Source: Alphaproteobacteria bacterium (lineage in GTDB: Bacteria; Pseudomonadota; Alphaproteobacteria; Micavibrionales; Micavibrionaceae). Taken from it: DNA of 64,000 nt. Of the stretch, positions 12,041-42,653 are shown piece by piece. Every line of letters begins with the position of its first letter. Positions within the stretch are counted from its first letter, which is position 1. The stretch lies in the NCBI GenBank assembly GCA_009995045.1, contig JAACQG010000007.1, forward strand, positions 117,641 through 181,640, given 5' to 3'. Under the pieces are notes generated by a model. That model was given only the letters and a program-made list of their open reading frames with translations, made no database searches and was not told the origin of the DNA. The position numbers were made by a program, and so were the translations under genes.

Positions 12041-12419
12041 TTCTTTCCACCATTGAGAAAAATCCGTTGCGGCGGTTAGGGCTTAGGTTTTGATCGAGGC
12101 CGATTTGCGCCATGGCGGCGTCAATATCGGTCGCCCTGATCTGCGCGAGGGATTTATCCTGATATGCGGCCATAAGAATGCCAATCAACCCGCGCACAAT
12201 ATGCGCGTCACTATCGGCGATGAAATGGAGTGTTTCGTCTTCAATCGTTGCGTCCATCCATACTTGTGATGTGCAGCCGCGCACGAGGTTGGTTTCAGTT
12301 TTCAAAGCATCGTCCATTTTGGGAAGCGCACGCCCCAAATCAATGAGGTAGCGATAACGCTCTTCCCAATCATCAAAGAGCGCGAAGTTTTCGATTAACT
12401 CTTCTAATTTATCAACCAT
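12015..12419 (-). CDS. sufE: SufE-type Fe-S cluster assembly sulfur acceptor
   Basis: SufE accepts sulfane sulfur from the SufS cysteine desulfurase. The 134-residue protein starts at MVDKLEELIENFALFDDWEE and carries YLIDLGRALP and LVRGCTSQVW with the persulfide-carrying cysteine (C51 by my count), then DSDAHIVRGLIGIL. ATG 12419 is used because CAGGAA lies upstream and family homology begins there. A second, diverged copy of its 5' end lies just upstream (12412-12540). The 3' end converges with the exported-protein gene, overlapping by 26 bp. No other suf gene is in the window. Confidence 0.93.
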   Translation of the reverse strand: MVDKLEELIENFALFDDWEERYRYLIDLGRALPKMDDALKTETNLVRGCTSQVWMDATIEDETLHFIADSDAHIVRGLIGILMAAYQDKSLAQIRATDIDAAMAQIGLDQNLSPNRRNGFFSMVERIKALSAQG

Positions 12420-12540
12420 AGTGCATTTCCTGTTTCTTAAAGTGTGCAAACAAACCTTCGGTTTGCTTTGCGGGCCAATCATCAAAGAGGGCGAAGTTTT
12501 CGACGAGTTCGTTTAATTCTTCGTTTTCTATGTCTGCCAT
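12412..12540 (-). pseudogene. Duplicated sufE 5' fragment forming a 42-codon upstream ORF
   Basis: ATG 12540 opens a frame beginning MADIENEELNELVENFALFD, then DW, which matches the SufE N-terminus. It runs on through a bulged hairpin (encoding AKQTEGLFA) and stops at a TGA overlapping the real sufE start by 8 bp. The two copies are 109 bp apart and in the same relative frame. Over the shared 12 codons the only amino-acid change is V/I. It could be a scar or a translationally coupled leader. Confidence 0.75.
12446..12471 (-). repeat. Bulged mini-hairpin element, copy 1 (sufE)
   Basis: On the minus strand GCAAA pairs with TTTGC, with one bulged G, and CAAACC pairs with GGTTTG around a GAA triloop. 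The same bulged structure occurs at 34736-34761 and 42573-42600, with compensatory base changes in the stems. Confidence 0.7.
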
Positions 12541-12659
12541 GTCAATTTTCTTGCTTTATCGGTGTAAAAATACATTTTGTTTATATAAGGGGTTGCGTCG
12601 TGTTTGACCAGTTCGCTAAGTTAATAATGTAAAACAATTTCTAAGGGATAAATCCATCC

Positions 12660-13991
12660 ATGAGCAAATCAGAAAAAAGCGATAGCAAAAACACACTTTA
12701 CTGTTCTTTCTGCGGTAAGAGCCAACATGAGGTGCGTAAGCTCATTGCGGGGCCAAATGTATTCATCTGTAATGAATGCGTGGAGCTTTGCATGGATATC
12801 ATCCGTGAAGAAGACAAAACCCAACTTGTGCGCGATGGCGCCGATGGAGTCCCTGCCCCGTCAGAGATTAAGAATTTCCTCGATGACTATGTTATCGGTC
12901 AGGAAGCAGCCAAGCGCGTTCTCGCGGTTGCCGTGCATAACCACTATAAACGCCTAGAGCATGGCGGTAGCGGTTCTGATGTTGAGTTGGCGAAATCCAA
13001 TATCATGCTTTGCGGGCCGACCGGTTGTGGTAAGACATTGCTGGCGCAGACATTGGCGCGTATTTTGGATGTGCCGTTCACCATGGCGGATGCAACAACA
13101 TTGACCGAAGCCGGTTATGTTGGTGAAGATGTTGAGAATATCGTCCTTAAATTGCTGCAGGCGTCTGACTATAATGTTGAGCGTGCGCAAAAAGGGATTG
13201 TCTATATTGATGAGATCGACAAAATCTCCCGCAAATCTGACAACCCATCCATCACACGAGATGTATCGGGCGAAGGTGTTCAACAAGCGCTTTTGAAATT
13301 GATGGAAGGGACGGTTGCTTCTGTTCCTCCACAGGGCGGGCGTAAACATCCTCAGCAAGAGTTCTTGCAGGTTGATACGAAAGATATTCTGTTTATCTGT
13401 GGTGGTGCGTTTGCGGGTCTGGATAAGATTATTGCGCAACGTGGTCGCGGTACGACAATTGGATTTGGCGCGGACATCAAAGATTTGGATGATGCACGCG
13501 GTATTGGCGAATTGTTCCAAGAGCTTGAGCCGGAAGATTTGTTGAAATACGGTCTTATCCCTGAATTTGTTGGTCGTTTGCCAGTGATTGCAACGCTTGA
13601 AGATTTGGATGAAGATGCGCTTATCACGATCCTCACTCAGCCAAAGAATGCGATCGTAAAGCAATACACCAAATTGTTCGACATTGAGGGCGTTGATTTG
13701 ACGTTCACCGATGACGCATTGAAAGCGATTGCGCAAAAAGCGATTGCGCGTAAAACTGGTGCGCGTGGTCTTCGTTCGATTATCGAAAATCTATTGCTGA
13801 ACACTATGTACGAAGTGCCGGACATGGAAGATGCGAAAGAAGTTATCGTTGATGGCGACACGGTTCGTGAGAATAAAGAACCTGAAATCGTTCATGAAAA
13901 AGGTAAGAAGAAGGCGACAAAGTCTAAGAAAACTGCCGATAAGAAAAAAGACGATAAAGAAGAAAAAGATGACGCGGATGATGCGGCTTAA
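12660..13991 (+). CDS. clpX: ATP-dependent Clp protease ATP-binding subunit ClpX
   Basis: An AAA+ unfoldase that feeds substrates to ClpP. The 443-residue protein has the N-terminal C4 zinc domain (CSFCGK...CNECVELC, about 15-44), Walker [11 protein letters not shown] near 120, Walker [14 protein letters not shown], the [11 protein letters not shown] pore-2/RKH region and sensor 2 [10 protein letters not shown]. The last 35 residues are an unusual lysine/aspartate-rich tail ([14 protein letters not shown]...) not found in standard 420-residue ClpX. clpP is not adjacent; lon is not in the window. Its promoter shares the region with the divergent sufE. Confidence 0.97.
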
Positions 13992-14000
13992 TCTTTAGCC

Positions 14001-14543
14001 TCATCCCCCTATCCCATCACACCGTGGCGCCACATCTTCTGGCGCCATGTTTGTTTTTAGATCTTTCGTTGCGCGCGCAGACAGCATACCAACACAGAAA
14101 AGCAGCATATCCATCTCTTTTTGCGATGATGCGCTCAGTGTAACGCCAAATATATTCATTGGTGGAGACTTTCTTAGACCATTAAATGTGGCGCCTAATA
14201 GATTTGCAGAGCCAAGGAAAGAATTTCGCAAAGCCCTTAAGTCGTCTTTTAAGCTTTCGGAGATATAAGTTTTATCAAAACTAACATTGACGATTAGAGA
14301 AGCCCCGCTTTTTGCAAATTTTTGATGAACGACTATCTGCTTTTTTAATGCGTCACTGATATAAAAACGCATACCAGAATGCACATTCCTAGCGCGGTCA
14401 ATTTCTACCTCTGAAATAACGCCATTTTTCTCCATTGATTTCAGCGAGTTTTCTAACGTTTGCGCCGCCTTTTTCGGGTCGAATTCTGCATTTCCTTCAT
14501 ACATTTGCGCATCATTAACGCACCGAATTAATATGTCAAACAT
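14001..14543 (-). CDS. Hypothetical protein (180 aa)
   Basis: An intact soluble protein with no family I recognise. It is mixed alpha/beta with basic and hydrophobic segments (GASLIVNVSFDKTYISESLK, then FLGSANLLGATFNGLR) and a cysteine near each end. There is no signal peptide or membrane helix apart from a mildly hydrophobic MDMLLFCVGML. It converges on clpX, ending 10 bp away, and diverges from the DHH gene. Orphan-like; function unknown. Confidence 0.6.
   Translation of the reverse strand: MFDILIRCVNDAQMYEGNAEFDPKKAAQTLENSLKSMEKNGVISEVEIDRARNVHSGMRFYISDALKKQIVVHQKFAKSGASLIVNVSFDKTYISESLKDDLRALRNSFLGSANLLGATFNGLRKSPPMNIFGVTLSASSQKEMDMLLFCVGMLSARATKDLKTNMAPEDVAPRCDGIGG
14025..14047. terminator. 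Paired TGGCGCCA palindromes, possible clpX terminator
   Basis: TGGCGCCA occurs at 14025-14032 and again at 14040-14047, each self-complementary, separated by 7 nt, and followed on the plus strand by TGTTTGTTTTT. It can form an 8-bp stem downstream of clpX, but it lies inside the 3' end of the convergent gene. Confidence 0.4.
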
Positions 14544-14659
14544 ATTATTCTCGAATTCATTTGCGCTTTGTTTACTTTGTTTTTATCCTTTTGCGTGAGA
14601 ATATAAATTCGACTGCTTTTCATTACCCATTTGAATACATATAGAGAAAGAAGAATTCC

Positions 14660-15625
14660 ATGAGCATTTCGCCGGCAGCCATTTTGGATAATCCCAATCA
14701 AAAATTCCGCCTTATCACACGCAGTGATATGGATGGCTTGGTATGTGGGGTTTTGCTCAAAGAGCTTGGTTTGATTGATGAAGTGACATTTGCGCATCCC
14801 AAGGATATGCAAGATGGCCTTATTGATGTTGGCCCCAATGATATCACAACGAATCTTCCTTATGTTGAGGGTGTCTACATGGCGTTTGACCACCACGCAT
14901 CCGAAATGGAGCGCGTAAAAGGAAACCCGGAGAATCATGTGATTTTACCGCAATGTCCATCTGCGGCGCGTGTGGTTTATGATTTCTTCGGCGGCGCGGA
15001 ACGTTTCCCCGATGTATCCGATGCCATGATGTCGGCAGTTGATAAAGCGGATTCGGCGCAATTTTCCAAGGAAGATATCCTAAACCCAGGTGGCTGGGAG
15101 CTGCTTAGCTTTTTGATGGATGCGCGCACCGGTCTTGGGCGTTTCCGTGATTTCAATATTTCCAATTATCAATTGATGATGAAACTGATTGATCATTGTC
15201 GTGATCATGATGACATTGACGATATCCTTGAGCTTCCTGATGTTAAGGAACGCGTTGATATTTACTTTGACCATCAGGTTAAATTCCGTGAACAGCTTGA
15301 GCGCTGCGCGAAGGTACATGACAATCTTGTGATTCTTGACCTACGTAAAGAAGACACGATCTGGGCGGGGAACCGTTTCATGATTTATGCGCTTTATCCG
15401 CAGACGAATATCTCTATCCATATCTTATGGGGTAAGAACAAGCAGAACACGGTCTTTGCGATTGGGAAATCTATCATCAACCGTACATCAAAAACCAATA
15501 TTGGCGAGCTATGCTTGTCTTATGGCGGTGGCGGTCATGATGCGGCGGGTACGTGCCAGATTGAAAACCTGAAGGCAGAAGAAGTTTTGACCGAGATCAT
15601 CAAAAAAATTAATGCGGATGGATAA
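14660..15625 (+). CDS. DHH/DHHA1-family phosphoesterase
   Basis: A probable metal-dependent phosphoesterase related to NrnA, RecJ and exopolyphosphatase-like proteins. The DHH domain has RSDMDGLVCGVLL (about 21-33) and FDHHASE (about 73-79). The C-terminal DHHA1 nucleic-acid-binding domain ends with the glycine motif GGGGHDAAGTC near residue 292. The substrate could be short oligonucleotides or polyphosphate; the sequence does not decide. 321 aa, single gene with its own 5' region. The photolyase gene begins 55 bp downstream. Confidence 0.87.
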   Translation: MSISPAAILDNPNQKFRLITRSDMDGLVCGVLLKELGLIDEVTFAHPKDMQDGLIDVGPNDITTNLPYVEGVYMAFDHHASEMERVKGNPENHVILPQCPSAARVVYDFFGGAERFPDVSDAMMSAVDKADSAQFSKEDILNPGGWELLSFLMDARTGLGRFRDFNISNYQLMMKLIDHCRDHDDIDDILELPDVKERVDIYFDHQVKFREQLERCAKVHDNLVILDLRKEDTIWAGNRFMIYALYPQTNISIHILWGKNKQNTVFAIGKSIINRTSKTNIGELCLSYGGGGHDAAGTCQIENLKAEEVLTEIIKKINADG

Positions 15626-15680
15626 GCATTAATTCCTTCCATGCGGTTGAATTACTGTTACGCCATCCCATGTCACTGAT

Positions 15681-17120
15681 ATGACACAAAAAAACGCTAT
15701 TGTATGGTTTCGTCAAGATTTACGCCTTGCCGATAACCCCGCTTTAAATGCTGCGCTTGATGCGGGGCATGCGGTTATTCCCGTATACATCCTAGATGAT
15801 GAAAACGCCGCCGAGTGGAAGCTTGGTGGGGCAACGCGATGGTGGCTACATCAAAGCCTAACCTCGCTTCAGGATGATTTGCGTGAGCATTTGATCATAC
15901 GCCAAGGCGACGCGGCGAGCGTTATACAAGCGTTGATAGAAGATACAGGCGCGGTCGCAGTCTATTGGAATCGCTGTTACGAGCCATGGCGCATTAAACG
16001 CGATGAAGCCATCAAAAGCGGATTGAAAGATAACGGCATTGATGTTGAGAGCTTTGACGGATCCATGCTCTGGGAGCCGTGGCAGGTTCTTAAGGATGAT
16101 GAAACGCCCTATCGCGTCTTTACGCCTTATTACCGCAAAGGCTGCGCGAAGAGTGAACCACGCAAACCCCTTGATCGTCCAGATCGCATTACTTATGGCG
16201 ATCATGACGCCGTGATGGGACATGTCGATGATTTGGCGTTGATGCCGGACATTCAATGGTATGATGGCATGGCGGCGTTTTGGGATGTTGGTGAAGATGC
16301 CGCGCATAAACGCCTGCAGGATTTTCTTGAGGGCGGCTTAAAAGGCTACAAAGATGATCGCAACCGCCCTGATATGGAGAATGTATCACGGATGTCACCA
16401 TATTTGAGGCATGGCGAGATTTCTCCGAATCAGGTCTGGCATATCGCAAAAGAGTATGCGGCGGCCAACAACATCCCCGACAAAGATATCGATCATTATT
16501 GCAGTGAGCTTGGCTGGCGGGAGTTTTCTTATTATTTGCTGTTTCACTTCCCAAAGATCACTTGGGATAATTTGCAAGATAAGTTTGATGATTTCCCTTG
16601 GGATGAAAGCGATAGCGAGGAGCTTAAGCGCTGGCAGGATGGTCAGACGGGCATTCCGATTGTTGACGCAGGAATGCGCCAGTTATATGAAACGGGCTGG
16701 ATGCATAACCGCGTACGGATGATTGTTGGCTCATTGCTGGTTAAAAATCTTTTGATCCACTGGCATAAGGGTGAGGAATGGTTTTGGGATACGCTGGTTG
16801 ATGCTGACCTTGCGAGCAATAGCGCGAGTTGGCAATGGGTTGCGGGATCGGGCGCGGATGCTGCCCCTTATTTTCGAATCTTTAACCCCCTGCTTCAGGG
16901 TGAGAAATTTGATCCCAATGGCGATTACGTGCGGCGATATGTCCCTGAGTTAAAGGATATGCCGAAAGAATTTATTCATAAACCATGGGAAGCAGGGCCG
17001 CTTATCTTACAAAGCGCAGGCGTTAAGCTTGGTGAGGATTACCCTGAGCCGATTGTTGACCTAAAAGAATCACGAGAGCGTGCGCTCGATGCATTGCAAA
17101 GCACTAAGCAATCGGATTAA
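15681..17120 (+). CDS. phrB: Deoxyribodipyrimidine photolyase
   Basis: A light-driven DNA repair enzyme (cryptochrome/photolyase family, class I CPD type). The 479-residue protein has the N-terminal antenna domain (IVWFRQDLRLADNPAL). The C-terminal FAD domain has LGWREFSYYLLFHFP, GIPIVDAGMRQLYETGWMHN, RMIVGSLLVKNLLIHW and SWQWVAGSGADAAPYFRIFN, which include the flavin-binding and electron-transfer tryptophan positions. Length is normal (470-480). The S66 peptidase begins 9 bp after its stop, so the two are probably co-transcribed. Confidence 0.96.
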   Translation: MTQKNAIVWFRQDLRLADNPALNAALDAGHAVIPVYILDDENAAEWKLGGATRWWLHQSLTSLQDDLREHLIIRQGDAASVIQALIEDTGAVAVYWNRCYEPWRIKRDEAIKSGLKDNGIDVESFDGSMLWEPWQVLKDDETPYRVFTPYYRKGCAKSEPRKPLDRPDRITYGDHDAVMGHVDDLALMPDIQWYDGMAAFWDVGEDAAHKRLQDFLEGGLKGYKDDRNRPDMENVSRMSPYLRHGEISPNQVWHIAKEYAAANNIPDKDIDHYCSELGWREFSYYLLFHFPKITWDNLQDKFDDFPWDESDSEELKRWQDGQTGIPIVDAGMRQLYETGWMHNRVRMIVGSLLVKNLLIHWHKGEEWFWDTLVDADLASNSASWQWVAGSGADAAPYFRIFNPLLQGEKFDPNGDYVRRYVPELKDMPKEFIHKPWEAGPLILQSAGVKLGEDYPEPIVDLKESRERALDALQSTKQSD

Positions 17121-17129
17121 CCTAGAGGG

Positions 17130-17984
17130 ATGATAGATCCTCAATCAAAAATTGGTGTATGCGCCCCCTCCTCCTATGTTGAGAAAGACGACATTGATTT
17201 GGCGGCGGATAGTCTTCGGGCGCGCGGCTATGATGTTTTCGTGCATCCGCAAACATTCATGCGCGAGCATCAATCCGCCGGATCACATCAGCAAAAGATC
17301 GATGCGATCCATGATTTATACCGCGATGAGAGCATTGACGTGATATGGGCTGCGGGCGGCGGTAATCGTACGATGCATAGTGTTGACCGGCTTGATTATG
17401 ATTTGATTGCGCGCAATCCAAAGCCGATGATCGGGTTTAGCGATGTGACCGCCCTGTTGAATGCGATCACGGTTAAGACGGGGATCATCAATATCCATGC
17501 GCAGGTTTTTAAGAATCTCCCGCAATACCAAGAATTAGACGCCCTGCTGAGTGGGGATTACACGATGTCGTTTGAGAATGCCCGCATCATGAAAGCAGGT
17601 GATGCGCGTGGGGCGATTTATGGCGGTAATCTTAGCCTGTTTCAATATCTGCCCGAAACGCTAGGGCATTCATTTTTGGATGGTGCGATTTTATGCCTTG
17701 AAGATTGTAACGAGGAATTGAGCCGCATTGACCGTATGTTTTTACATTTAAAGCGCATTGGCGCTCTTGATCGTATCGGCGGGCTTATTCTCGGGACGTT
17801 TAGTGATCTGGCTGATAGCACGCGGCCATTCGGCTTTTCTCTGGACGATATTGTTCGTGAGCATATTGAAGGGCTTGATATTCCCGTCATAATGGATGCG
17901 CCGTTTGGTCATGGCGGGCATTTGTCACCTCTGCCGATTGGTGCGCAAGGTGAGATGAATAAAAAATCGCTTCGAATCATTTGA
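17130..17984 (+). CDS. LD-carboxypeptidase-like protein (peptidase S66, LdcA/MccF)
   Basis: S66 enzymes cleave the L-Lys/mDap-D-Ala bond of murein tetrapeptides during recycling, or inactivate microcin C-type compounds. Visible features are IGVCAPSSYVEKDD at the N-terminus, WAAGGGNRTMHSVDRLDY with the oxyanion-hole glycines, the nucleophile S in IGFSDVTALLNA (about 108), the E of LEDCNEELSRIDRM, and the H of the DAPFGHGGHLSPLPIGA segment. At 284 aa it is slightly shorter than LdcA. Its ribosome binding site is jammed against the ATG (AGAGGG directly before it). Confidence 0.9.
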   Translation: MIDPQSKIGVCAPSSYVEKDDIDLAADSLRARGYDVFVHPQTFMREHQSAGSHQQKIDAIHDLYRDESIDVIWAAGGGNRTMHSVDRLDYDLIARNPKPMIGFSDVTALLNAITVKTGIINIHAQVFKNLPQYQELDALLSGDYTMSFENARIMKAGDARGAIYGGNLSLFQYLPETLGHSFLDGAILCLEDCNEELSRIDRMFLHLKRIGALDRIGGLILGTFSDLADSTRPFGFSLDDIVREHIEGLDIPVIMDAPFGHGGHLSPLPIGAQGEMNKKSLRII

Positions 17985-18149
17985 TAATTCTCTTTTCACC
18001 GCGATATTACTACCCTCAAGGCATTGAAAAACATCACTCAAACTTAATTTTTCCTTATTTAACAAGACTCTAATATAAGGTGTTTGACTCCCGCGCGAAA
18101 ATGTGCATAATTTAGTACATACTAATAAATAAAAAAATGAGTAAAAAGG

Positions 18150-18860
18150 ATGGGCGCCGTGTTGCATTACAGGGATACAACGCGCGGTTCTTTCGAAATG
18201 TGGGGCAATGGTTTTCGATACGATTACGATAACAACAAAAGCGCGCTAAGCGTTTTCCACCATGAGTCAGAAAGACTGCTTGCACAATTTAAATTTGATT
18301 CACTCTTGTTAAAAGAGCCACGCACCTATGTTGGCTTTCTTGATAAGGCGTCGCAAATTAACGCGTTAATGGTAAGCAATAACAGCACCGTTAATCTTGC
18401 CGAAACAATGCCTTTACGCCATGTTGCACCGATATTTCAGAGCATTGGCGTGATTTCACGGCATGCATTTGACCTTCACATACTCGACCTACCCCGCTTC
18501 AGCGAACGGTTCGCACAAGAATACGGCCTTAAATCCATCAATATTAAGCCCTTTAAATCACGCGATTGTGAGAATGCATTTTTTATAGCACGCCTTCAGA
18601 CACTGCATGACAATTGCATCAGCGTGCGGGCATGTACATTAGGCGGTATTATGGGGGCGCTATCGGAAAGTACGTTGCGTGACCTTATGACGATGGAATT
18701 TGGACATCGTTATAATGGCTCTGCACAGAATTTGCTCAATGCATCCTCTAAACTTTCTTCGCTTTCCTACATTTTGGATGAGAGTTTTGTGCCTGAAATG
18801 AAGGTTTTTAGCTCAAATACAGATAAAATTGATTATATTCACAGCAAGTCAACGCATTGA
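18150..18860 (+). CDS. Hypothetical protein (236 aa)
   Basis: A soluble protein of unknown family with no signal peptide or membrane helix. It starts MGAVLHYRDTTRGSFEMWGN; a hydrophobic/acidic mid-section follows (LHILDLPRFSERFAQEYGLK), then a helix-rich C-terminus. AAAAGGA precedes the ATG. It is monocistronic: an AT-rich promoter region lies upstream and a hairpin 19 bp downstream. No recognisable catalytic motif. Orphan-like. Confidence 0.6.
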   Translation: MGAVLHYRDTTRGSFEMWGNGFRYDYDNNKSALSVFHHESERLLAQFKFDSLLLKEPRTYVGFLDKASQINALMVSNNSTVNLAETMPLRHVAPIFQSIGVISRHAFDLHILDLPRFSERFAQEYGLKSINIKPFKSRDCENAFFIARLQTLHDNCISVRACTLGGIMGALSESTLRDLMTMEFGHRYNGSAQNLLNASSKLSSLSYILDESFVPEMKVFSSNTDKIDYIHSKSTH

Positions 18861-18878
18861 TTCATAACAATTTTATAT

Positions 18879-18918
18879 CTTTTTGTGAATCAAAAGTGTC
18901 ATTTCGAGTCACAAAAAG
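18879..18918. terminator. Perfect 10-bp inverted repeat after the 236-aa gene
   Basis: CTTTTTGTGA (18879-18888) and TCACAAAAAG (18909-18918) pair perfectly around a 20-nt loop, directly downstream of the stop. No U-run follows on the plus strand, so it may be an RNA-stabilising hairpin or operator, not a classical terminator. Confidence 0.4.
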
Positions 18919-18968
18919 TTGAAAATTAACGAAAAATTAAGTATAGTAATTCTATTCACACCAAGTGA

Positions 18969-19672: not shown

Positions 19673-19697
19673 TCACCACGGCTGATATTAGAATTTC

Positions 19698-19730
19698 AAA
19701 AGCGCGGACTTCACGGTTCGCGCTTTTTTT
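19698..19730 (+). terminator. Rho-independent terminator of carD
   Basis: AAAGCGCG (19699-19706) pairs with CGCGCTTT (19719-19726) and is followed by a run of T to 19730. Confidence 0.88.
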
Positions 19731-19850
19731 GTGCCCTTTTTATGATTGAGCCGCCCTGCCCTTTGCTATCACCCTCAATCTATTATATACTTATATTCGT
19801 TACGGGAACTCTCCCGTCTGTTCATTCATGATCGAAACTTGATATCAATT

Positions 19851-21841: not shown

Positions 21842-21868
21842 GTCATTGCGAACGCAGCGAAGCAATCC
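21842..21868. repeat. Half copy of the dispersed palindromic repeat
   Basis: GTCATTGCGAACGCAGCGAA followed by GCAATCC matches one arm of the repeats at 11389-11466 and 38643-38726. The second arm is missing. It lies between rpoH and the convergent M48 gene. Confidence 0.7.
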
Positions 21869-33908: not shown

Positions 33909-34682
33909 TTAATTTAAAAGCTCACCTTCAAAGACGTACGCGACGGGTCCTGTCATCATCAGATGCCCGTCCGATTCTTGGCGCTCAATGAAGATTGTTC
34001 CACCGTCTAATTCTATCTCAACTTTGCGCTTTGTACGCCCCGAATGGAGGCCAGCAGTTGCCACTGCGCATGCGCCGGAGCCACAAGCAAGCGTGACACC
34101 GACACCACGTTCCCATGTTTTTTGACGCATTTTGGTATCAGATAAGATTTCCACAAACTCAACGTTTGTTTTATTTGGGAAAATTGGGTTGTTTTCCACA
34201 AGGGGTCCGATCTCTTCCACAGGTATATCCACAAGGTTATCCACGAAAAAGACGCAATGTGGATTTCCCATATTGACAGAAATCGGTGCATGCGCCACGC
34301 CCTCGCTGAGGGTTAATTCCTCCACATTCATGGGCGCGCCCATATCAACCGTGACCATGTTATTTTCGGCGCGCGTACATGGCAATACCCCCCTGCCCGT
34401 TTCAAGGGTACAGGTATCGGCGTTGTGTTCGCGCATGACGATATCAGCGACGCATCGTGTGGCATTTCCGCAGGCATCACTTTCGGAGCCATCGGCGTTA
34501 TAAAAGCGGGCGTACACATCGGCATTATCCGATGGCTCCAACACGGTAAGCAGATCACAGCCCACACCGAAATTGCGGTCGCAGATATGTTTGATTTGCC
34601 CCGGGGAGAGCGGCTCTGATTTCGTGCGGAAATCGAGGATGACAAAATCATTTCCTAGCCCATGCATTTTTCTAAATTTCAT
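33909..34682 (-). CDS. dapF: Diaminopimelate epimerase
   Basis: Converts LL- to meso-diaminopimelate for lysine and peptidoglycan. 257 residues with MHGLGNDFVILD at the N-terminus, the first catalytic cysteine in SDACGNATRCVA, GNPHCVFFVD, and the second catalytic cysteine in LACGSGACAVATA. At 257 it is slightly shorter than the E. coli enzyme (274). A diverged copy of its first eight codons lies 103 bp upstream beside a bulged hairpin. GGGTGAAG precedes the ATG. Confidence 0.96.
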   Translation of the reverse strand: MKFRKMHGLGNDFVILDFRTKSEPLSPGQIKHICDRNFGVGCDLLTVLEPSDNADVYARFYNADGSESDACGNATRCVADIVMREHNADTCTLETGRGVLPCTRAENNMVTVDMGAPMNVEELTLSEGVAHAPISVNMGNPHCVFFVDNLVDIPVEEIGPLVENNPIFPNKTNVEFVEILSDTKMRQKTWERGVGVTLACGSGACAVATAGLHSGRTKRKVEIELDGGTIFIERQESDGHLMMTGPVAYVFEGELLN

Positions 34683-34785
34683 TTTTCTTCACCCTATTAT
34701 TATTTGTTAAATTGCACGGGCTTCTTGATATAGAGGCAAACAAATCTTCGATTTGCTTTGCACCGTGCATTTTTCTAAACTTTAT
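34672..34785 (-). pseudogene. Duplicated dapF 5' end with upstream ORF
   Basis: Bases 34763-34785 repeat the first 23 bases of dapF (34660-34682), with three differences, all at third codon positions; one turns the ATG into ATA. The frame stays open through the hairpin, encoding GAKQIEDLFA, and stops at 34672, overlapping the dapF start by 11 bp. From the internal ATG at 34770 it would encode 32 residues. The arrangement is the same as at sufE. Confidence 0.7.
34736..34761 (-). repeat. Bulged mini-hairpin element, copy 2 (dapF)
   Basis: On the minus strand GCAAA pairs with TTTGC, with a bulged G, and CAAATC pairs with GATTTG around GAA. It differs from copy 1 only by a compensated pair (C-G to T-A). 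It directly follows the duplicated dapF start. Confidence 0.7.
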
Positions 34786-34841: not shown

Positions 34842-34847
34842 CCCATC

Positions 34848-36541: not shown

Positions 36542-36840
36542 TGATCAGAAAAATATACGCAGCAACTATTTCTATTATTGCACTTCCTGTTCTCTACCTA
36601 ATACTACAAATGGTATTTAGCATTCTTGGTAGCATTTTCGTGCATTCTGTAGGCATTGTGGATATACAACCAACTGATATAAAAGGCGTTTCTGCTACAA
36701 ACCCTGAAGATTCATCGAAATTAGAAATAACAATAGGGATAGCAAAAATTCTTTCGTTTATTGTTGCAGCGATAATAGCATTTGCATCATTTCAAAATAT
36801 TGTTGGCCGAGGACCAAGAAAAAATGAAGAGAGCAATTAA
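36541..36840 (+). CDS. AT-rich two-helix membrane protein between ffh and rpsP
   Basis: A 99-residue orphan with a hydrophobic N-terminal helix (TISIIALPVLYLILQMVFSI), an exported polar loop (QPTDIKGVSATNPEDSSKLE) and a second helix (ILSFIVAAIIAFASF), ending in a basic, polar tail. Base and codon use (ATA, TTA, AAA) is much more AT-rich than ffh and rpsP. Its ATG overlaps the ffh stop by one base, so it is translationally coupled. Function unknown; probable foreign insertion in a conserved operon. Confidence 0.6.
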   Translation: MIRKIYAATISIIALPVLYLILQMVFSILGSIFVHSVGIVDIQPTDIKGVSATNPEDSSKLEITIGIAKILSFIVAAIIAFASFQNIVGRGPRKNEESN

Positions 36841-36881
36841 TATCATTAAATTTGTAAGAACTATTAAAAAGGAGAAAAACT

Positions 36882-37406
36882 ATGGCACTTGCAATCAGAC
36901 TATCTAGAGGTGGACGTAAGGCGCGTCCATTTTATCGTATCGTTGTTGCGGATAAGCGTATGCCCCGTGACGGACGTTACATCGAGAAATTGGGGACTTA
37001 TAACCCATTGCTCGAAAACGACAATGACCAGCGTGTTCAGCTTGTTGAAGATCGTGTGAAATACTGGCTTGAGCAAGGTGCGAAACCTTCCGAGCGTGTT
37101 GCGATTTTCTTGGGTAAAGCGGGCTTAGCGCCTGTTCCTGCGCAACCTGATCGTCCGAACAAATCTAAGCAATCTGAAAAGACTGCGCTTAAGATTGCGG
37201 ATAAGAAGGAAAAGCAAGAAGCGGCTGCGGAGGCTGCTAAAGAAGCGGCAGCGGAAGCTAAAGCAGCAGAAGACGCGGCGAAAGCCGAAGCAGCGGCAGC
37301 GCCTGTTGAAGATGCTCCGGCACCTGAAGCAGCGGATGCACCTGTTGACGCTCCTGCGGATGCGGAAGCAGAAGCCCCCAAAGAAGAAGAAAAGCCAGCC
37401 GAGTAA
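36882..37406 (+). CDS. rpsP: Ribosomal protein S16 with long Ala/Glu/Lys-rich tail
   Basis: A 30S subunit protein. Residues 1-90 are a standard S16 ([57 protein letters not shown]). A low-complexity tail of about 75 residues follows: first [20 protein letters not shown], then [21 protein letters not shown]16 is normally 80-100 residues, with modest extensions in some alphaproteobacteria. AGGAG lies upstream. A terminator follows directly, so rimM is not simply read through. Confidence 0.95.
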
Positions 37407-37434
37407 GCTTTTCCTTCATAATACGCCATTTCAT

Positions 37435-37467
37435 TACACCCTCTCCTGTGTTTATCGGGAGAGGGTT
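37435..37467 (+). terminator. Rho-independent terminator after rpsP
   Basis: ACCCTCTCC (37435-37443) pairs with GGAGAGGGT (37455-37463) and is followed by TTTTT. It splits the rpsP-rimM-trmD-rplS cluster transcriptionally. Confidence 0.88.
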
Positions 37468-37556
37468 TTTGATTTATGGTATTGCGATAATAGTTTGCAG
37501 GGTGACTATTTTATGCTAGATGTCGGCAATCACTGCGTAACAGAAGGAATAATATT

Positions 37557-38114
37557 ATGGGTAAACATGTATTAGTAGCACCGGGTCTTGACCACAAAAT
37601 CGATTACGTTACCTGGAACACCCAAGGCAAGCCCCCTCAATCAGAGCATGGCGGTGAGGGGAAATTATTAGTTCCTGGAGACGCCATTTATGAACAGCAT
37701 GCAGTTAACTATAAAGCAAAACCATTCCTTGTTGACCTTTTTACCAGACATGCAAAAGTTGATCTTTCGATAAGAGCTTTATCTCATGGCGTATATAGAA
37801 CAACAGGCCTTCATCACGTCAATGTTTCTGACTATGGCCTTCCATCATCGCTTAGCGATATACGAGAGGGTAAAGGCATATATGCATTTACAGCCATCGT
37901 TGAGGGACAAGGTGATATTACAGGAGAAAGACTTTACGCCAGATATTTTAATGCCCTAGAACAGAATAGACAAGAGCTGACAAGAGCCTTAAAAGATTAT
38001 GATAGAGTAGGAATTTCTGAGTTTTGGGATAATCTATCGAGCGAAAGAAAAAGGTTAAAGCATATCGACTGCCCAATTTTTCCACATGACGGCTCACCTT
38101 TATTTGAACGATAA
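37557..38114 (+). CDS. Hypothetical 185-aa protein between rpsP and rimM
   Basis: A soluble orphan. It starts MGKHVLVAPGLDHKIDYVTW, then GKLLVPGDAIYEQHAVNYKA, a basic middle (RHAKVDLSIRALSHGVYRTT) and a helical C-terminus (NALEQNRQELTRALKDYDRV). No signal peptide, membrane helix or known motif. AAGGA before the ATG is well placed. More AT-rich than rimM, 10 bp from the rimM start. It follows a terminator, so it should have its own promoter between 37468 and 37540. Probable insertion in the operon. Confidence 0.6.
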   Translation: MGKHVLVAPGLDHKIDYVTWNTQGKPPQSEHGGEGKLLVPGDAIYEQHAVNYKAKPFLVDLFTRHAKVDLSIRALSHGVYRTTGLHHVNVSDYGLPSSLSDIREGKGIYAFTAIVEGQGDITGERLYARYFNALEQNRQELTRALKDYDRVGISEFWDNLSSERKRLKHIDCPIFPHDGSPLFER

Positions 38115-38123
38115 AAAAAACAT

Positions 38124-38630
38124 ATGACCACACAATCAAACACCCAAACCCCGCCCCCTTCGGAAAAGCGCATCTGTCTTGGTGTGATTGCGCAGGCGCA
38201 TGGGGTTAAGGGGTTGGTTAAGATTTTGCCGTATGGGGATGATCCTTATCTGATTGAGTTGGTTGAGGAATTTGAGATTACGCTCAAGAACCCGCATGGG
38301 AAGTATTTCCTCGCCGAGATTGCGGGCATTGATAGTCGTGAGGCGGTGGATGCGATTAAGGGCACGCAATTGTTCATTGATCGTGACCAATTGCCTGATC
38401 CTAATGAGGGGGAATATTATATTGAAGACCTTGTCGGGATGAAGGCCGTGAACATAGCGGGCAAAGACGCGGGCGTGGTGATTGCGGTGCATAATTTTGG
38501 CGCGGGTGATTTGCTGGAGATTAAGCCGCCGAGCGGTGAGGCTTATCTTGTGCCGTTTACAGACGATCACGTGCCAGAGGTTAGAGATGACAGCGTGACC
38601 GTTATTCCGATGATTGATGGTATTGGATGA
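38124..38630 (+). CDS. rimM: 16S rRNA processing protein RimM
   Basis: Assists maturation of the 30S head and binds S19. 168 residues: the N-terminal RimM domain (LGVIAQAHGVKGLVKILPYG, SREAVDAIKGTQLFIDRDQL) and the C-terminal PRC-barrel domain (EYYIEDLVGMKAVN, GAGDLLEIKPPSGEAYLVPF). Length is normal. No Shine-Dalgarno is visible (an A-run precedes the ATG). A palindromic repeat fills the gap to trmD. Confidence 0.94.
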   Translation: MTTQSNTQTPPPSEKRICLGVIAQAHGVKGLVKILPYGDDPYLIELVEEFEITLKNPHGKYFLAEIAGIDSREAVDAIKGTQLFIDRDQLPDPNEGEYYIEDLVGMKAVNIAGKDAGVVIAVHNFGAGDLLEIKPPSGEAYLVPFTDDHVPEVRDDSVTVIPMIDGIG

Positions 38631-38642
38631 GACACTTAAAAC

Positions 38643-38726
38643 GTCATTACGAGGAGGCAAAGCCGACGCGGCAATCCAAAAACTGCTCTTGATGGCTATG
38701 GATTGCTTCGCTTGGCTCGCAATGAC
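38643..38726. repeat. Dispersed palindromic repeat, copy 2, abutting trmD
   Basis: Left arm GTCATTACGAGGAGGCAAAG with CGGCAATCC, right arm GGATTGCTTCGCTTGGCTCG with CAATGAC, separated by about 22 bases. It ends two bases before the trmD ATG and so occupies the place of its ribosome binding site. Confidence 0.85.
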
Positions 38727-38728
38727 TT

Positions 38729-39427
38729 ATGAAACATAAACTCAATTTCAATATCCTCACCCTTTTTCCAGAGATGTTTCCCGGGTCGCTTGGCATGTCA
38801 TTGGCGGGGAAAGCGCTTGAGCGGGGGGATTGGGGGTATTCGACGGTGAATATTCGTGATTACGGGATTGGCACGCATAACGCGGTCGATGATGCGCCGT
38901 ATGGCGGGGGTGCGGGCATGGTGATGCGCGCCGATGTGATTGAAAGCGCCCTGCTCTCTTTGCCCAAAGCCGTGCGTAAGATTTATCTCTCGCCGCGCGG
39001 AAAGCCGCTCACGCAAAATCTAGTGCAGGAATTGGCGGCGACGCCTGATATCACGCTATTGTGTGGGCGGTATGAGGGCGTGGATCAGCGGGTTTTGGAT
39101 GCGTATGATTTTGAAGAGGTTTCGATCGGTGATTATGTGCTTTCGGGCGGAGAGCCAGCCGCGCTGATCCTCATGGATGCCTGCATTCGCTTGCTTGACG
39201 GGGTGATGGGCAATAGCGAGACGGTGAGTGAGGAAAGCTTTTCCAATGGATTGTTAGAATATCCGCATTACACGCGCCCCGCCGAGTGGCAAACCCGATG
39301 CGGTGATACGCTGGATGCGCCAAAGGTTTTGACATCGGGTGATCATAAGAAGATCGCCGCATGGCGTGACGAGGAGCGGTTGGACATCACTCGAAAGATA
39401 CGTCCTGATCTTTTGGAAAAAAAGTAA
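38729..39427 (+). CDS. trmD: tRNA (guanine-N1-)-methyltransferase TrmD
   Basis: Methylates G37 of tRNAs with a G36, preventing frameshifting. 232 residues with the SPOUT fold: FNILTLFPEMFPGSLGMSLAG, IRDYGIGTHNAVDDAPYGGG, LLCGRYEGVDQRVLDAYDFE, the knot region EVSIGDYVLSGGEPAALILM and the catalytic D in DACIRLLDGVMG. The start is placed at the ATG immediately after a repeat. There is no Shine-Dalgarno, so initiation must depend on coupling or be leader-independent. Length fits. Confidence 0.95.
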   Translation: MKHKLNFNILTLFPEMFPGSLGMSLAGKALERGDWGYSTVNIRDYGIGTHNAVDDAPYGGGAGMVMRADVIESALLSLPKAVRKIYLSPRGKPLTQNLVQELAATPDITLLCGRYEGVDQRVLDAYDFEEVSIGDYVLSGGEPAALILMDACIRLLDGVMGNSETVSEESFSNGLLEYPHYTRPAEWQTRCGDTLDAPKVLTSGDHKKIAAWRDEERLDITRKIRPDLLEKK

Positions 39428-39621
39428 CACAACCAAACGTCCAGCTGTTTTTCTTGGCGGCGATAAACAGGTCTTTTCTCACGTTTTTACCTTGCAATTT
39501 CATCTGCACTCTGACATAAACAGTCAAAATTTGGATGCGTATGTCCGGATGACCATAAAAAAGATAAATAACCTGCTAGGGAATTCCCTAATTACGAGGT
39601 TTCAAACAAGGAAATAAAACG

Positions 39622-40215
39622 ATGAATATACTACAAAAATTTGAAGCCAAAGAGCTTGGCAAACTACAAGAAACAAAAACAATCCCATCCTTTAGTTCTG
39701 GTGACACGGTTCGCGTGAATGTCCGTATTAAAGAAGGTACGCGTGAGCGTATTCAGGCGTATGAAGGCGTTGTGATTGCACGTAAGGGTTCCGGCATTAA
39801 CGAGAATTTTACAGTGCGCAAAATTTCATATGGCGAAGGCGTTGAGCGTGTGTTCCCGCTTTGGAGTTCACGTATCGATTCTATCGAAGTTGTTCGTAAA
39901 GGCTCTGTACGTCGTGCAAAGCTTTACTATCTTCGTGATCTTCGCGGTAAGAAAGCACGTATTGTTGAGCGTACAACTGGTCATGGTTTTGACACCACAG
40001 TTGATGAAGAAGCAGAACAGCTAACACAAACACAAAAACGCGCGCAGAAAAAAGCAGCGAAAGATGCGAAACGTGCGGAAGCGCGCAAAGAGCAAGAAGC
40101 TGCGATCAAAGCGAAAGCAGATGCAAAAGCGGCCGAGAAAAAAGCAGCGGATGACGCAGCGAAAGCAGAAGCCGACGCAGCAGCAGCGGCAGCGGCAGAA
40201 GGCAACGCAGAATAA
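39622..40215 (+). CDS. rplS: Ribosomal protein L19 with long Ala/Lys-rich tail
   Basis: A 50S protein at the 30S/50S interface. Residues 1-115 are a standard L19 ([79 protein letters not shown]). The extra 75-80 residues are almost only A, K, E, D and R ([20 protein letters not shown]...). Normal length is 115-130. The S16 gene of the same cluster has a similar extension. A clear AAGGA ribosome binding site and a terminator frame it. Confidence 0.95.
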
Positions 40216-40238
40216 GCGCTTGCCCCGTTTAAGAATTT

Positions 40239-40274
40239 TAAAAAACCGCCGATCATGTGATGGACGGTTTTTTT
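40239..40274 (+). terminator. Rho-independent terminator of rplS
   Basis: AAAAAACCG (ending 40248) pairs with CGGTTTTTT (from 40265), enclosing a smaller CC-ATCA/TGAT-GG stem. The symmetric A/T flanks allow termination from both sides, serving also the convergent orphan gene. Confidence 0.85.
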
Positions 40275-40294
40275 GTGATTTGATTTTCGGTCTT

Positions 40295-40999
40295 TTAAAT
40301 GTCGTTGGCTCCGGGAACGAAATCCGGTCTCTGCGGCTCTACCGTTCCATCGAGAACATTTTGCGCCTTATCCCAATCGCCTTGAGAAACTCCGTAATCA
40401 GTAGGATTTTGCGCATCCAATTGCGATGATAATTGAGACGTATAAGCAGGCAAATCTCTGGCTAACTTAACCCCTGCGTAAACGCTATCTACATTATTAA
40501 ATACTGCGGCATGTTCAGGGTCATTCATATCAAGACTACCGCCATCTGGAGTGCCCATGGCATCAGACCTAAATTCTTCCAGAGCTTCTAAAATACCATT
40601 TCCGATAAGATCGTAAGCCTGTTCCGAGTCTATTTGCCCATTAAAGATATGAACAGCTTCCACAGCGTCAATACCCTCAGGTAATATCCCCTCTAGCCTC
40701 TCCTCGCCAAGCATCAAGGTTGCTTTTGACACAGCGCTTTGTGCAATTCCCTCAATATGATCTGTTGTCATCGCGCCTAAAGCAACGATATTTGATCCTT
40801 GGTATCCACTTAAAACCTCATTGGGTATTTTTTCAAACCCCGCTACTTCATTGTTATCAGCCCCTTCAGTAAAGCTTCTGAAAACAAGTGTATTGTTGCC
40901 TTCGGCCGGTGCCACTGGAACAATAATATCATAGGTTCCCAAAATTGCATGCTCAACAGTCGCTGCATTTGCAAATGTTTCTTGGTTATGTCCTGCCAT
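40295..40999 (-). CDS. Hypothetical protein (234 aa) between rplS and leuC
   Basis: A soluble, acidic orphan without signal peptide: MAGHNQETFANAATVEHAIL, DIIVPVAPAEGNNTLVFRSF, then ALGAMTTDHIEGIAQSAVSK and a Q/N/D-rich C-terminus. No motif recognised. Its start is followed 136 bp away by the divergent leuC ATG. Its AT content is higher than its neighbours'. Probably lineage-specific. Confidence 0.6.
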   Translation of the reverse strand: MAGHNQETFANAATVEHAILGTYDIIVPVAPAEGNNTLVFRSFTEGADNNEVAGFEKIPNEVLSGYQGSNIVALGAMTTDHIEGIAQSAVSKATLMLGEERLEGILPEGIDAVEAVHIFNGQIDSEQAYDLIGNGILEALEEFRSDAMGTPDGGSLDMNDPEHAAVFNNVDSVYAGVKLARDLPAYTSQLSSQLDAQNPTDYGVSQGDWDKAQNVLDGTVEPQRPDFVPGANDI

Positions 41000-41135
41000 G
41001 TTTTATTACCCTCTTAAATAATAACGTTTGTCCGTGCCTGTAATTGGCATTCTTGAATTGACATGGCTCGTGCCTATTTGTTTAATTGCCAATCCTGAAC
41101 ATATTGTAGGGATTAAACATTAAAGAGAGATTAAC

Positions 41136-42557
41136 ATGCCGAATAATCCAAAAGCCAAGCCACGCACCTTGTTTGAAAAGATATGGGATGACCATGTTGT
41201 GCATCAACAAGATGATGGAACGTGCCTGATTTATATTGATCGGCATTTGGTGCATGAAGTGACATCGCCGCAGGCCTTTGAGGGGTTGCGCTTGGCGGGG
41301 CGCAGTGTTCGCCGTCCGGCCAATACATTGGCGGTGATGGATCATAACGTGCCGACAACCGATCGCAGCGTGCCAATTGCGCAGGAAGATAGCCGCATTC
41401 AGGTTGATACGCTTCGCAGAAATTGTGCGGAATTTGGTGTGGAATTGTTTGATTTGACGGATAAGCGTCAGGGCATTGTGCATATTATCGGGCCAGAGCA
41501 AGGGTTCACCCTGCCCGGCATGACGATTGTGTGCGGAGACAGCCATACAAGCACGCATGGCGCGTTTGGGGCGCTTGCGTTCGGGATTGGCACGAGTGAG
41601 GTTGAACACGTCCTAGCGACGCAGACATTGATCCAAAAACCCGCAAAGACAATGCGCATCACCGTTGATGGCGCGTTGCAGCCGGGTGTGACGGCGAAAG
41701 ACATGGTTTTGGCGATTATCGGTAAAATCGGTACGGCTGGCGGTACGGGATATGTGCTTGAATATGCGGGTGAAGCGGTGCGTAATCTTTCGATGGAAGG
41801 ACGCATGACGATTTGTAATATGTCGATCGAGGGTGGCGCGCGTGCGGGGCTTGTTGCGCCTGACGAGACTACGTTTCAGTATATCAAAGGGCGTCCACGC
41901 GCCCCCAAAGGTGCGGAATTTGATCAGGCGGTTGCCTATTGGAAGACTTTGGCGAGCGATGAAGGCGCGCATTACGATAAAGAAATCGTGCTTCATGGCC
42001 CTGATATTGAACCAACAGTGACATGGGGCACAACGCCCGAAGATGTGATCGCGATTACTGGCAGTGTGCCCTCGCCCGAGGATTTCGATGATGAGCATAA
42101 GCGCGCATCCGTGCAGCGTATGCTTGATTATATGGGCCTAAAGGCGGGAATGAAGATGACCGATATCACGCTTGATAAGGTGTTTATCGGGTCATGCACC
42201 AATGCGCGGATCGAAGATTTGCGCGAGGTTGCGAAGGTTGTTGAAGGCAAAAAAGTTGCGGCGAACATTAAGGAAGCGATGGTTGTTCCTGGCTCTGGTC
42301 TGGTTAAGATTATGGCCGAGGAAGAAGGCATTGCGGATATCTTGATTGAAGCGGGATTTGATTGGCGTGAACCGGGATGTTCGATGTGTTTGGGGATGAA
42401 CCCTGACCAGCTTGAGCCGGGTGAGCGATGTGCATCGACATCAAACCGCAATTTCGAAGGTCGCCAAGGGCGCGGTGGACGCACGCATTTGGTATCCCCT
42501 GCTATGGCGGCGGCTGCCGCGATTACTGGTCATTTGACCGATATTCGGGAATTTTAG
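41136..42557 (+). CDS. leuC: 3-isopropylmalate dehydratase large subunit
   Basis: With LeuD it isomerises 2- to 3-isopropylmalate in leucine synthesis through a [4Fe-4S] cluster. 473 residues, with [20 protein letters not shown] near 131, and the cluster cysteines in [17 protein letters not shown] and in [14 protein letters not shown]. Length is normal. A diverged second copy of its last 17 codons follows the stop. leuD lies about 1.95 kb downstream instead of adjacent, separated by two antisense genes and an HD gene. Confidence 0.97.
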
Positions 42558-42572
42558 GCCTCTTTTGGTTTA

Positions 42573-42600
42573 GCGAACAATACCTGCGGCATTGCTTCGC
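42573..42600 (-). repeat. Bulged mini-hairpin element, copy 3 (leuC 3' end)
   Basis: On the minus strand GCGAA pairs with TTCGC, a G is bulged, and CAATGCC pairs with GGTATTG around GCA. The outer and inner stems differ from copies 1 and 2 by compensatory changes, so the fold is conserved more than the sequence. Confidence 0.65.
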
Positions 42601-42602
42601 GG

Positions 42603-42653
42603 GCGGCTGCGGCGGCGATTACGGGGCATTTGACCGATATTCGGGAATTTTAG
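42603..42653 (+). pseudogene. Duplicated leuC 3' end
   Basis: 51 bases repeat the last 17 codons of leuC (42507-42557) at a distance of 96 bp and still encode [16 protein letters not shown] and a stop. The five differences are all at synonymous third positions. It has no start codon; the hairpin at 42573-42600 lies between the copies. Confidence 0.85.

What the first reader, a model, noticed from the sequence alone, without database searches (positions are those of the whole stretch)
12412..42653. A three-copy family of structure-conserved mini-hairpins linked to gene-end duplications: candidate new element or allele-exchange scar
Three hairpins (12446-12471, 34736-34761, 42573-42600) share a 5-bp outer stem, one bulged G, a 6-7 bp inner stem and a triloop, with covarying bases. 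Each lies between two copies of the end of the adjacent gene, 96-109 bp apart. On the minus strand each directly follows the outer gene-end copy. Ordinary MITEs give short target duplications; 23-51 bp duplications of coding ends that keep the gene intact are unusual. The pattern fits either a gene-restoring mobile element or a mark of homologous exchange with a close relative.
Basis: inference. Interest (0 to 1): 0.82.

Follow-up and report, generated by a model that had tools for sequence, protein, structure and literature searches.

The report
Hairpin insertions carrying spare gene ends
In a family of little-studied bacteria, pieces of DNA about 100 letters long, each starting with the same kind of small hairpin, sit inside the ends of tRNA and housekeeping genes, beside a displaced copy of the gene end, and the gene stays whole.

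Summary
The hairpins form a real repeat family (27 sequences, 99.3% of cells paired, at most 42% when slid), patchy within one family of Micavibrio-like Alphaproteobacteria: 23 of 105 genomes. A gene-end copy abuts the hairpin in 26 of 146 hairpins against 4 of 2490 random positions. Targets are tRNA ends, tmRNA, dapF, leuC, sufE, fabH, nadK, phnA and a phage tail gene, several at the same site in different genera. Identity stops at the gene boundary (447/477 inside, 140/353 outside) and changed codons are synonymous (35 to 3), so the copies diverged as working genes; a plain target-site duplication is excluded. Sister genomes G003/G007 show empty sites for fabH and phnA; the phnA body is 92-98% identical over the 300 nt next to the junction, against whole-gene exchange. 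Next to the hairpin come about 10 A/T-rich bases and often an inverted copy of the target site (>=8 nt in 10 of 19 spacers, chance 6 of 383). Best reading: a mobile double-hairpin mini-element ending in a replacement gene end. Enzyme unknown; mobility inferred.

The parts
12446..12471 (-). hairpin HP1 (26 nt, bulged G)
12436..12445 (-). A/T-rich linker after HP1 (acactttaag)
   Evidence: linker consensus from 147 hairpins
12366..12419 (-). inner (working) 5' end of sufE, part of sufE 12015-12419
12475..12540 (-). outer (displaced) 5' end of sufE, ATG at 12538-12540, truncated after codon 22
34736..34761 (-). hairpin HP2 (26 nt)
34724..34735 (-). A/T-rich linker after HP2
34709..34720 (-). inverted copy of the dapF target core; only 5 nt match exactly, 9 of 10 with one mismatch
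34660..34682 (-). inner (working) 5' end of dapF with a new leader; dapF 33909-34682
34763..34785 (-). outer (displaced) 5' end of dapF, start codon now ATA, at the native spacing from the conserved upstream sequence
42573..42600 (-). hairpin HP3 (28 nt)
42558..42572 (-). 15-nt spacer between leuC stop codon and HP3; too short to hold the inverted target copy
42506..42557 (+). inner (working) 3' end of leuC; leuC 41136-42557
42602..42653 (+). outer (displaced) 3' end of leuC; all 5 changed codons are synonymous

Best explanation
The three features are inserted copies of a non-autonomous, double-hairpin mini-element. On the hairpin strand the insert reads: conserved hairpin HP; about 10 A/T-rich bases; in many copies an inverted stretch G' matching the intact target site; a short flank; and a direct copy G of the end of the target gene. 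The insert lies inside the gene end at point X. The incoming end G completes the gene and the resident end is pushed outside as a truncated remnant abutting HP. G' can pair with G, so many inserts can fold into two hairpins joined by the A/T linker. The solo and paired hairpins elsewhere (HP-AT-HP' inside other palindromes) are the same building block without a gene end. SHOWN: the repeat family and its covariation; recurrent gene-end duplications, nearly always on the same side of the hairpin; identity confined to the gene part; divergence under coding constraint; empty sites in sister genomes; the inverted target copy in about half of the testable spacers. INFERRED: that the inner end came in with the insert from another lineage; that the unit moves as (single-stranded) DNA and finds its site through G/G' homology; that a trans-acting enzyme and vehicles such as phages carry it.
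For: Family and structure: (99.3% of cells paired, 35 double-changed cells, 0 of 500 shuffles as high). Orthologous tail-gene hairpins of G071 and G072 (gene 86% identical) differ by a paired A-T to C-G change, beside one outer pair lost. Patchiness: 23 of 105 family genomes, 8 of 39 genera; in the order sample 21 of 143 genomes, all in the same family. Association: 26 of 146 hairpins with a left-abutting duplication, 4 of 146 right-abutting, 4 of 2490 random positions left-abutting. The 26 rows are 24 places, since L035 and L143 count twice. Gene-limited identity, 16 loci: 447/477 in gene ends (six tRNAs 146/146); 15 loci: 140/353 in flanks. Synonymous bias, 13 pairs: 35 to 3 changed codons, 19% synonymous expected, binomial 2e-22. 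Same sites reused: dapF in G000, G007 and, in another genus, G077; leuC in G000 and G002 at the same codon; tmRNA in G005, G006, G093, G095; tail gene in G028, G070, G071, G072. Empty sites: fabH (G003 filled, G007 empty, 75-bp insert) and phnA (G007 filled, G003 empty). CGTC-1 repeats with (4) and without (4) an HP pair in the loop, 8 seen in fetched stretches. Inverted target copy: >=8 exact nt in 10 of 19 spacers, one of them misplaced, against 6 of 383 cross-gene pairings. Second stem ending at X in 7 of 11 inserts folded, 3 dapF and 4 tRNA. dapF outer copy at native spacing.
Against: No enzyme was found. PF01797 is under cut-off in all 8 genus genomes, with one degenerate match in G000. 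In 10 chosen family genomes it is over cut-off in hairpin-bearing G071, G077 and G095, in hairpin-free G009 and G011, and absent from hairpin-rich G053, G093 and G094. No longer HP-bounded unit with a gene-end repeat was seen, but reach to the right was a median 4 kb and 1.5-2 kb for a quarter of the hairpins. From fabH and phnA sequence alone the inserted copy cannot be told from the resident one: OUT to sister 7/44 and 3/21, IN to sister 9/44 and 5/21. The direction rests on dapF leader spacing and on the non-native flank of IN. The inverted copy is absent, misplaced or too decayed in 10 of 19 testable spacers, including sufE, nadK and leuC of G002, and 5 more spacers were too short to test. 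Second stem not formed with the gene end in sufE, leuC of G000 and tail G070. At one paired-hairpin locus (L143, tRNA-Ile of G093) the polarity is not the usual one. 120 of 146 hairpins show no duplication with this detector. No movement was observed.
Confidence: 0.5

Rival explanations
1. Scars of larger integrative elements. Islands or phages with tyrosine recombinases integrated at tRNA, tmRNA and other gene ends, brought a replacement end, displaced the old one and later lost their cargo, leaving about 100 bp.
For: Targets are classical island sites (recalled). G003 has about 650 bp of foreign DNA in place of the dapF leader. G007 has about 900 bp with an open frame between tig and tRNA-Leu(tag), where G003 has the hairpin scar. 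Trailers of 5 of 8 scar-bearing tRNAs share a box like ATCTTTAGAAA, and several a second box GATGAAGTGAACC, which could be arm sites.
Against: The same hairpin and linker at unrelated targets is not expected for many integrases. The 26 rows found give inserts of 58-149 bp, with no larger ones within the reach searched. No recombinase gene was evident among the ORFs read by eye around four hairpin clusters (no integrase model was run).
Confidence: 0.2
2. Replication template switching. A stalled strand folded back at a hairpin, copied the gene end backwards and then forwards (a micro tandem-inversion-duplication), leaving direct, inverted and direct copies.
For: Order outer (direct), hairpin, inverted copy, inner (direct) is the expected one. 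In tRNA-Leu of G003 the spacer aligns with 41 nt of the inverted tRNA end from the junction on (p 0.02), dapF of G077 with 26 nt (p 0.02), and tail G070 gives p 0.01.
Against: Copies would be identical at birth, flanks included, but gene parts are 94% alike and flanks 40%, and differences are synonymous even in 3' remnants that cannot be translated. The conserved hairpin plus linker is not local sequence. Only 4 of 23 spacers scored give p<0.05 for a whole-spacer inverted match, one of them not colinear with the junction.
Confidence: 0.13
3. Homologous allele exchange with a relative, one end resolved illegitimately at a hairpin that lies beside the gene in the donor.
For: Copies differ like alleles of related species. 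In G053 single hairpins stand 9-14 nt after stop codons of genes read by eye as groEL, tuf and rplL, as a donor would need.
Against: phnA gene body 92-98% identical to the sister over the 300 nt next to the junction, 82% in the last window at the gene start. fabH shows no identity break along 1.4 kb, 63-92% throughout. Gene-wise identities across the window do not single out sufE or leuC of G000.
Confidence: 0.1
4. REP/BIME-like palindromes spread by a RAYT transposase, with gene-end duplications a side effect.
For: Size, bulge, inverted pairs, intergenic location; REP features read in passages of PMC8266576. RAYT-type genes exist in G071, G077 and G095.
Against: No conserved tetranucleotide at the hairpin foot: left flank information at most 0.34 bits. 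No PF01797 gene in hairpin-rich G053, G093 and G094, and one in hairpin-free G009 and G011.
Confidence: 0.07

Closest known systems
Mobile C-terminal duplications of fungal mitochondrial genes (Allomyces, Glomus; PMC3630166, passages read)
   Same: Insertion in a gene end brings a foreign end, the native end is displaced, and copies differ in DNA far more than in protein.
   Different: Those inserts carry an endonuclease ORF (about 0.4-1 kb in the table seen); here there is no ORF, inserts are 58-149 bp, in bacteria, at 5' and 3' ends and RNA genes.
Repetitive or double hairpin-forming elements of mitochondria (PMC2800124, passages read)
   Same: Small dispersed hairpins, single or double, with complementary substitutions, in and between genes.
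   Different: No gene-end copy or inverted target copy is mentioned in the passages I saw.
REP/BIME and CGTC repeats (PMC3733652, PMC8266576, passages read)
   Same: 20-40-nt palindromes, some with a bulge, often in inverted pairs.
   Different: No GTAG/CGTC tag at the foot, no RAYT link, and gene-end replacement. The CGTC-1 repeat reported for Micavibrio is a separate family that serves as a landing site here.
tRNA/tmRNA-targeting integrative elements (recalled)
   Same: Replacement gene end at one side, displaced end at the other, same target genes.
   Different: No integrase, no cargo, and a shared hairpin at the crossover side for unrelated targets.
Rickettsia palindromic elements (recalled; listings only)
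   Same: Palindromes inserted in protein and RNA genes of Alphaproteobacteria.
   Different: RPEs are recalled as in-frame insertions without gene-end duplication.

Membership tests
REP/BIME mobilised by RAYT | conserved tetranucleotide GTAG (or CGTC) at the palindrome foot | tested here: not met
   left flank shows no conserved tetranucleotide in 147 hairpins
REP/BIME mobilised by RAYT | imperfect palindrome with mismatch or bulge, often in inverted pairs | tested here: met
   bulged G invariant in 27 aligned sequences, which were chosen by a pattern that fixes it; inverted pairs
REP/BIME mobilised by RAYT | RAYT (PF01797) gene in the genomes that carry the repeat | tested here: not met
   0 of 8 genus genomes over cut-off, one degenerate match; 5 of 10 chosen family genomes over cut-off, not matching hairpin abundance
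tyrosine-recombinase integrative element | gene end restored by element, displaced end at the far side | tested here: met
tyrosine-recombinase integrative element | integrase gene inside the element | tested here: not met
   the 26 inserts are 58-149 bp, without room for a gene
DNA-transposon MITE | terminal inverted repeats plus short fixed target duplication | tested here: not met
   duplicated stretch 16-54 nt in 16 loci, ending at gene boundaries, flanks not duplicated
mitochondrial mobile C-terminal elements | endonuclease ORF between the two gene ends | tested here: not met
   spacers of 3-77 nt hold no such ORF
integron attC cassettes | IntI integrase and attC R/L boxes | not tested
   considered only from the bulged hairpin; no IntI search was made
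Rfam RNA families | match to a described family at its gathering score | tested here: not met
   0 matches in the window

The most novel reading that the evidence does not exclude
A homing element guided by base pairing: the conserved hairpin and A/T linker form a scaffold, and the adjacent inverted copy of the intact target site is a guide that spans the insertion point. It directs an unknown enzyme to insert the unit and its restoring gene end at one site in a conserved gene. A change of guide plus gene end retargets it, which would explain one scaffold at tRNA, tmRNA and protein-gene ends.
Probability: 0.12. Interest if true: 0.92.

Novelty: new variant of a known kind. Interest (0 to 1): 0.68.

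Why it matters
A mobile unit of about 100 bp that replaces the end of an essential gene and leaves it working would be among the smallest gene-restoring insertions I know of in bacteria (recalled, not surveyed), and a route for short, silent patchwork of gene ends between species. It also gives a ready test set (same site, several species, sister empty sites) for asking how hairpin repeats move. Displaced ends can be misread as pseudogenes, partial tRNAs or island scars. I found no description of it: the searches (open-licence PMC only) gave the relatives listed, seen as listings or passages, but not this combination.

Tried and rejected
Simple target-site duplication: rejected because identity ends at the gene boundary. 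RAYT as mover: not supported. Larger HP-bounded units: one search returned 11 rows, which I read as repeats of composite flank sequences (L045, L136, L130, L026) or the L035 array, not gene ends; reach was limited. Recombinase genes near hairpin clusters L045, L136, L143 and L144: none evident by reading ORFs. Phage carriage: a pattern scan of viral contigs gave 35 stretches, of which only L314, identical at the site to a locus of G076, has the hairpin pair with its linker; three others fit the hairpin but lack the linker (56 loci). Foreign gene bodies in the window: gene-wise identities not decisive; relatives are distant. Whole-spacer inverted alignment: p<0.05 in 4 of 23 rows scored, 3 rows too short; the anchored test is stronger. 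In one search, 24 of 26 rows were used and 19 had spacers of 25 nt or more. Leaving out the misplaced match and the two L143 rows gives 8 of 17. In one search, 19 loci were listed: nadK and fabH were not scored (boundary not set) and tRNA-Cys of G003 fell below the detector; the sufE register is off by the length difference of its two starts. In one search only alignable in-frame stretches were used (sufE from ELVENF; nadK up to the point where the frames part). Upstream-ORF or leader-peptide function of the displaced 5' ends: considered, not general. The detector misses short ends (phnA of G007 was found only through the sister genome), so 26 of 146 is likely a lower bound.
Full report
WHAT IS THERE. 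The three hairpins and their gene-end duplications are present as described. Pfam names the genes SufE, diaminopimelate epimerase (dapF) and an aconitase-family protein, which I call leuC from its sequence and context. On the minus strand each site reads: end of the outer gene-end copy, 1-3 nt, hairpin, spacer (15 to about 53 nt), complete gene.

A REPEAT FAMILY. A pattern fixing only the outer bases gives 8 places in the own genome (control 0) and 31 places in 7 of 8 genomes of the genus. In a 27-sequence alignment 99.3% of cells pair, five pairs change on both sides, and slid controls pair at most 42%. The rows were picked from pattern hits, which biases the outer stem; the inner three pairs were free. 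A covariance model finds 23 of 105 genomes of the family and 8 of 39 genera at E<=1e-5. In the order sample it finds 21 of 143 genomes at E<=1e-6, all in the same family. The named records are Micavibrio sp. and unclassified Alphaproteobacteria. In 147 distinct hairpins from fetched stretches the left side is close to random, while about ten A/T-rich bases follow on the right (information up to 0.88 bits). Many copies come as inverted pairs HP-AT-HP', for example in the loop of CGTC-1 repeats: 4 with and 4 without the pair among 8 such repeats in fetched stretches of G094 and G095, none found in those of G093.

GENE ENDS. A duplication abuts the hairpin on its left in 26 of 146 hairpins (24 places), on its right in 4, and at 4 of 2490 random positions (left side only tested there). 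Targets: tRNA-Asn, -Cys, -Leu(tag), -Leu(gag), -His, -Pro (ARAGORN); tmRNA in G005, G006, G093 and G095 (ARAGORN); dapF in G000, G007 and G077; leuC in G000 and G002 at the same codon; sufE in G000; nadK in G000 and fabH in G003 (Pfam); a tail gene in G028, G070, G071 and G072. The G028 tail protein matches a pectate-lyase-like Pfam model, and its homologue in L045 matches phage tail families and lies among phage terminase, head and tail genes; the surroundings of the four target copies were not examined. phnA in G007 was found by sister comparison; a G093 homologue of phnA has the PhnA domain, the G007 gene itself was named by likeness to it. L143 is a paired-hairpin locus at the 5' end of tRNA-Ile with unusual polarity.

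THE COPIES DIVERGED AS WORKING GENES. For 16 scored loci the gene parts are identical at 447 of 477 sites (six tRNAs 146 of 146), while the adjoining flanks of 15 match at 140 of 353. In 13 coding pairs 35 changed codons are synonymous and 3 are not, where 19% would be expected. The 3' remnants of leuC, fabH, nadK and phnA have no start of their own, so this constraint must predate the juxtaposition. This excludes a plain target-site duplication and means that one copy was imported or carried by the insert.

EMPTY SITES. G003 and G007 are the closest pair in the genus set (dapF 88% identical). At fabH, G007 runs straight from flank through gene end into the gene, while G003 has 75 extra bp: hairpin, linker and a second, synonymously different end. 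At phnA the roles are reversed: G007 has the insert, and its gene body is 92-98% identical to G003 in the five 60-nt windows next to the junction, 82% in the sixth at the gene start. Sequence distance alone does not say which copy is resident (OUT to sister 7/44 and 3/21, IN to sister 9/44 and 5/21). For dapF the outer copy sits 24 nt after the conserved TCAAGGA sequence, as the gene does in empty G004 (32 nt in G006), while the inner leader is unrelated. I therefore take the outer copy as resident and the inner as incoming, by inference.

ANATOMY OF THE INSERT. Inserts are 58-149 bp in the 26 rows, with spacers of 3-77 nt. After hairpin and linker, many spacers hold an inverted copy of the intact target site. 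At least 8 exact nt are found in 10 of 19 testable spacers, one of them misplaced, against 6 of 383 cross-gene pairings. Of the nine well-placed ones, eight begin 10-17 nt after the hairpin and one (tRNA-His of G003, where a second hairpin intervenes) at 36; seven run across the junction with 3-4 nt from the gene-body side, and two (dapF of G007 and G077) begin at or just inside it. DNA folding of 11 inserts gives HP in all 11; in 7 (three dapF, four tRNA) a second stem joins the inverted copy to the very end of the insert; with the outer copy a stem around HP forms in 8. sufE shows neither. Of 26 distinct tRNAs, a trailer box like ATCTTTAGAAA is seen in 5 of 8 scar-bearing ones and in G007 tRNA-Leu(tag), in none of the other 17. 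G007 tRNA-His has the same plan with another hairpin, so the plan is wider than this hairpin family. Tandem arrays (L035 in the own genome, L053 in G005) show repeated insertion or unequal exchange.

HOW IT MAY WORK. The simplest account is a mini-element that moves as folded DNA, recognises its site by the gene-end homology it carries, inserts at X, and is tolerated because it completes the gene. Phages are one possible vehicle: L045 is a phage gene cluster with three hairpin places, and a tail gene is a target in four genomes. The enzyme is unknown; RAYT does not fit. Scars of larger islands remain the strongest rival: G003 dapF and G007 tRNA-Leu(tag) carry foreign DNA at the same places.

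KNOWN RELATIVES. Mitochondrial mobile elements of Allomyces and Glomus also bring a foreign gene end and displace the native one (PMC3630166, passages). Mitochondrial repetitive hairpin elements (PMC2800124, passages) and bacterial REP/CGTC repeats (PMC3733652; PMC8266576; passages) share the hairpin side. The M. aeruginosavorus ARL-13 genome paper reports almost no repeats or mobile elements but nine island-like regions, four beside tRNAs (PMC3189940, passages). In what I saw, none combines a conserved mini-hairpin with a carried gene end, so I rate this a new variant of a known kind.

Noticed in passing
window 21842-21868 and 38700-38726: Two copies (inverted to each other) of GTCATTGCGAACGCAGCGAAGCAATCC, which I read as the CGTC-1 type repeat reported for Micavibrio (PMC3733652); a different family from the hairpins here.
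   Followed up: partly
L083 (G003:C12) about 1259-1913: About 650 bp of foreign DNA with short or split open frames replaces the native dapF leader in G003, the same gene start that carries the hairpin in sister G007; dapF there starts MRFRKMHG.
   Followed up: partly
L316 (G007:C14) about 1740-2660: About 900 bp with an open frame (length not measured) lies between tig and tRNA-Leu(tag) in G007, where G003 has only the hairpin scar.
   Followed up: no
L319 (G007:C14) about 1795-1915: tRNA-His has a duplicated 3' end with a different short hairpin (ATTCGCTACGCGAAT) plus TATAAA, where G003 has the HP family hairpin followed by a similar short hairpin.
   Followed up: partly
L038 (G000:C24) around 1455-1620: The displaced nadK end stays open past the point where the working nadK stops, suggesting that the insert shortened the protein's C-terminus.
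   Followed up: no
L035 minus strand about 11850-12070 (G000:C25): Tandem array of two hairpins with three copies of the same adjoining sequence, about 92 bp apart.
   Followed up: partly
L045 (G004:C62): Phage gene cluster (terminase, head, tail) with hairpin places between its genes and a composite repeat (TTTTTAAAGC-ATC-GCTTTAAAAA-TTGTAACGAGC) beside them.
   Followed up: partly
L122, L124, L133 (G053): In the hairpin-rich genome G053 single hairpins stand between the stop codons and terminator-like hairpins of genes read by eye as groEL, tuf and rplL.
   Followed up: no
tRNA trailers in L032, L316, L317, L319, L024: A box like ATCTTTAGAAA 15-19 nt after CCA, and in several a second box like GATGAAGTGAACC, in trailers of scar-bearing tRNAs.
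   Followed up: partly
L143 about 9376-9560 (G093:C6): A hairpin pair stands between an intact tRNA-Ile and a second copy of its 5' end.
   Followed up: partly
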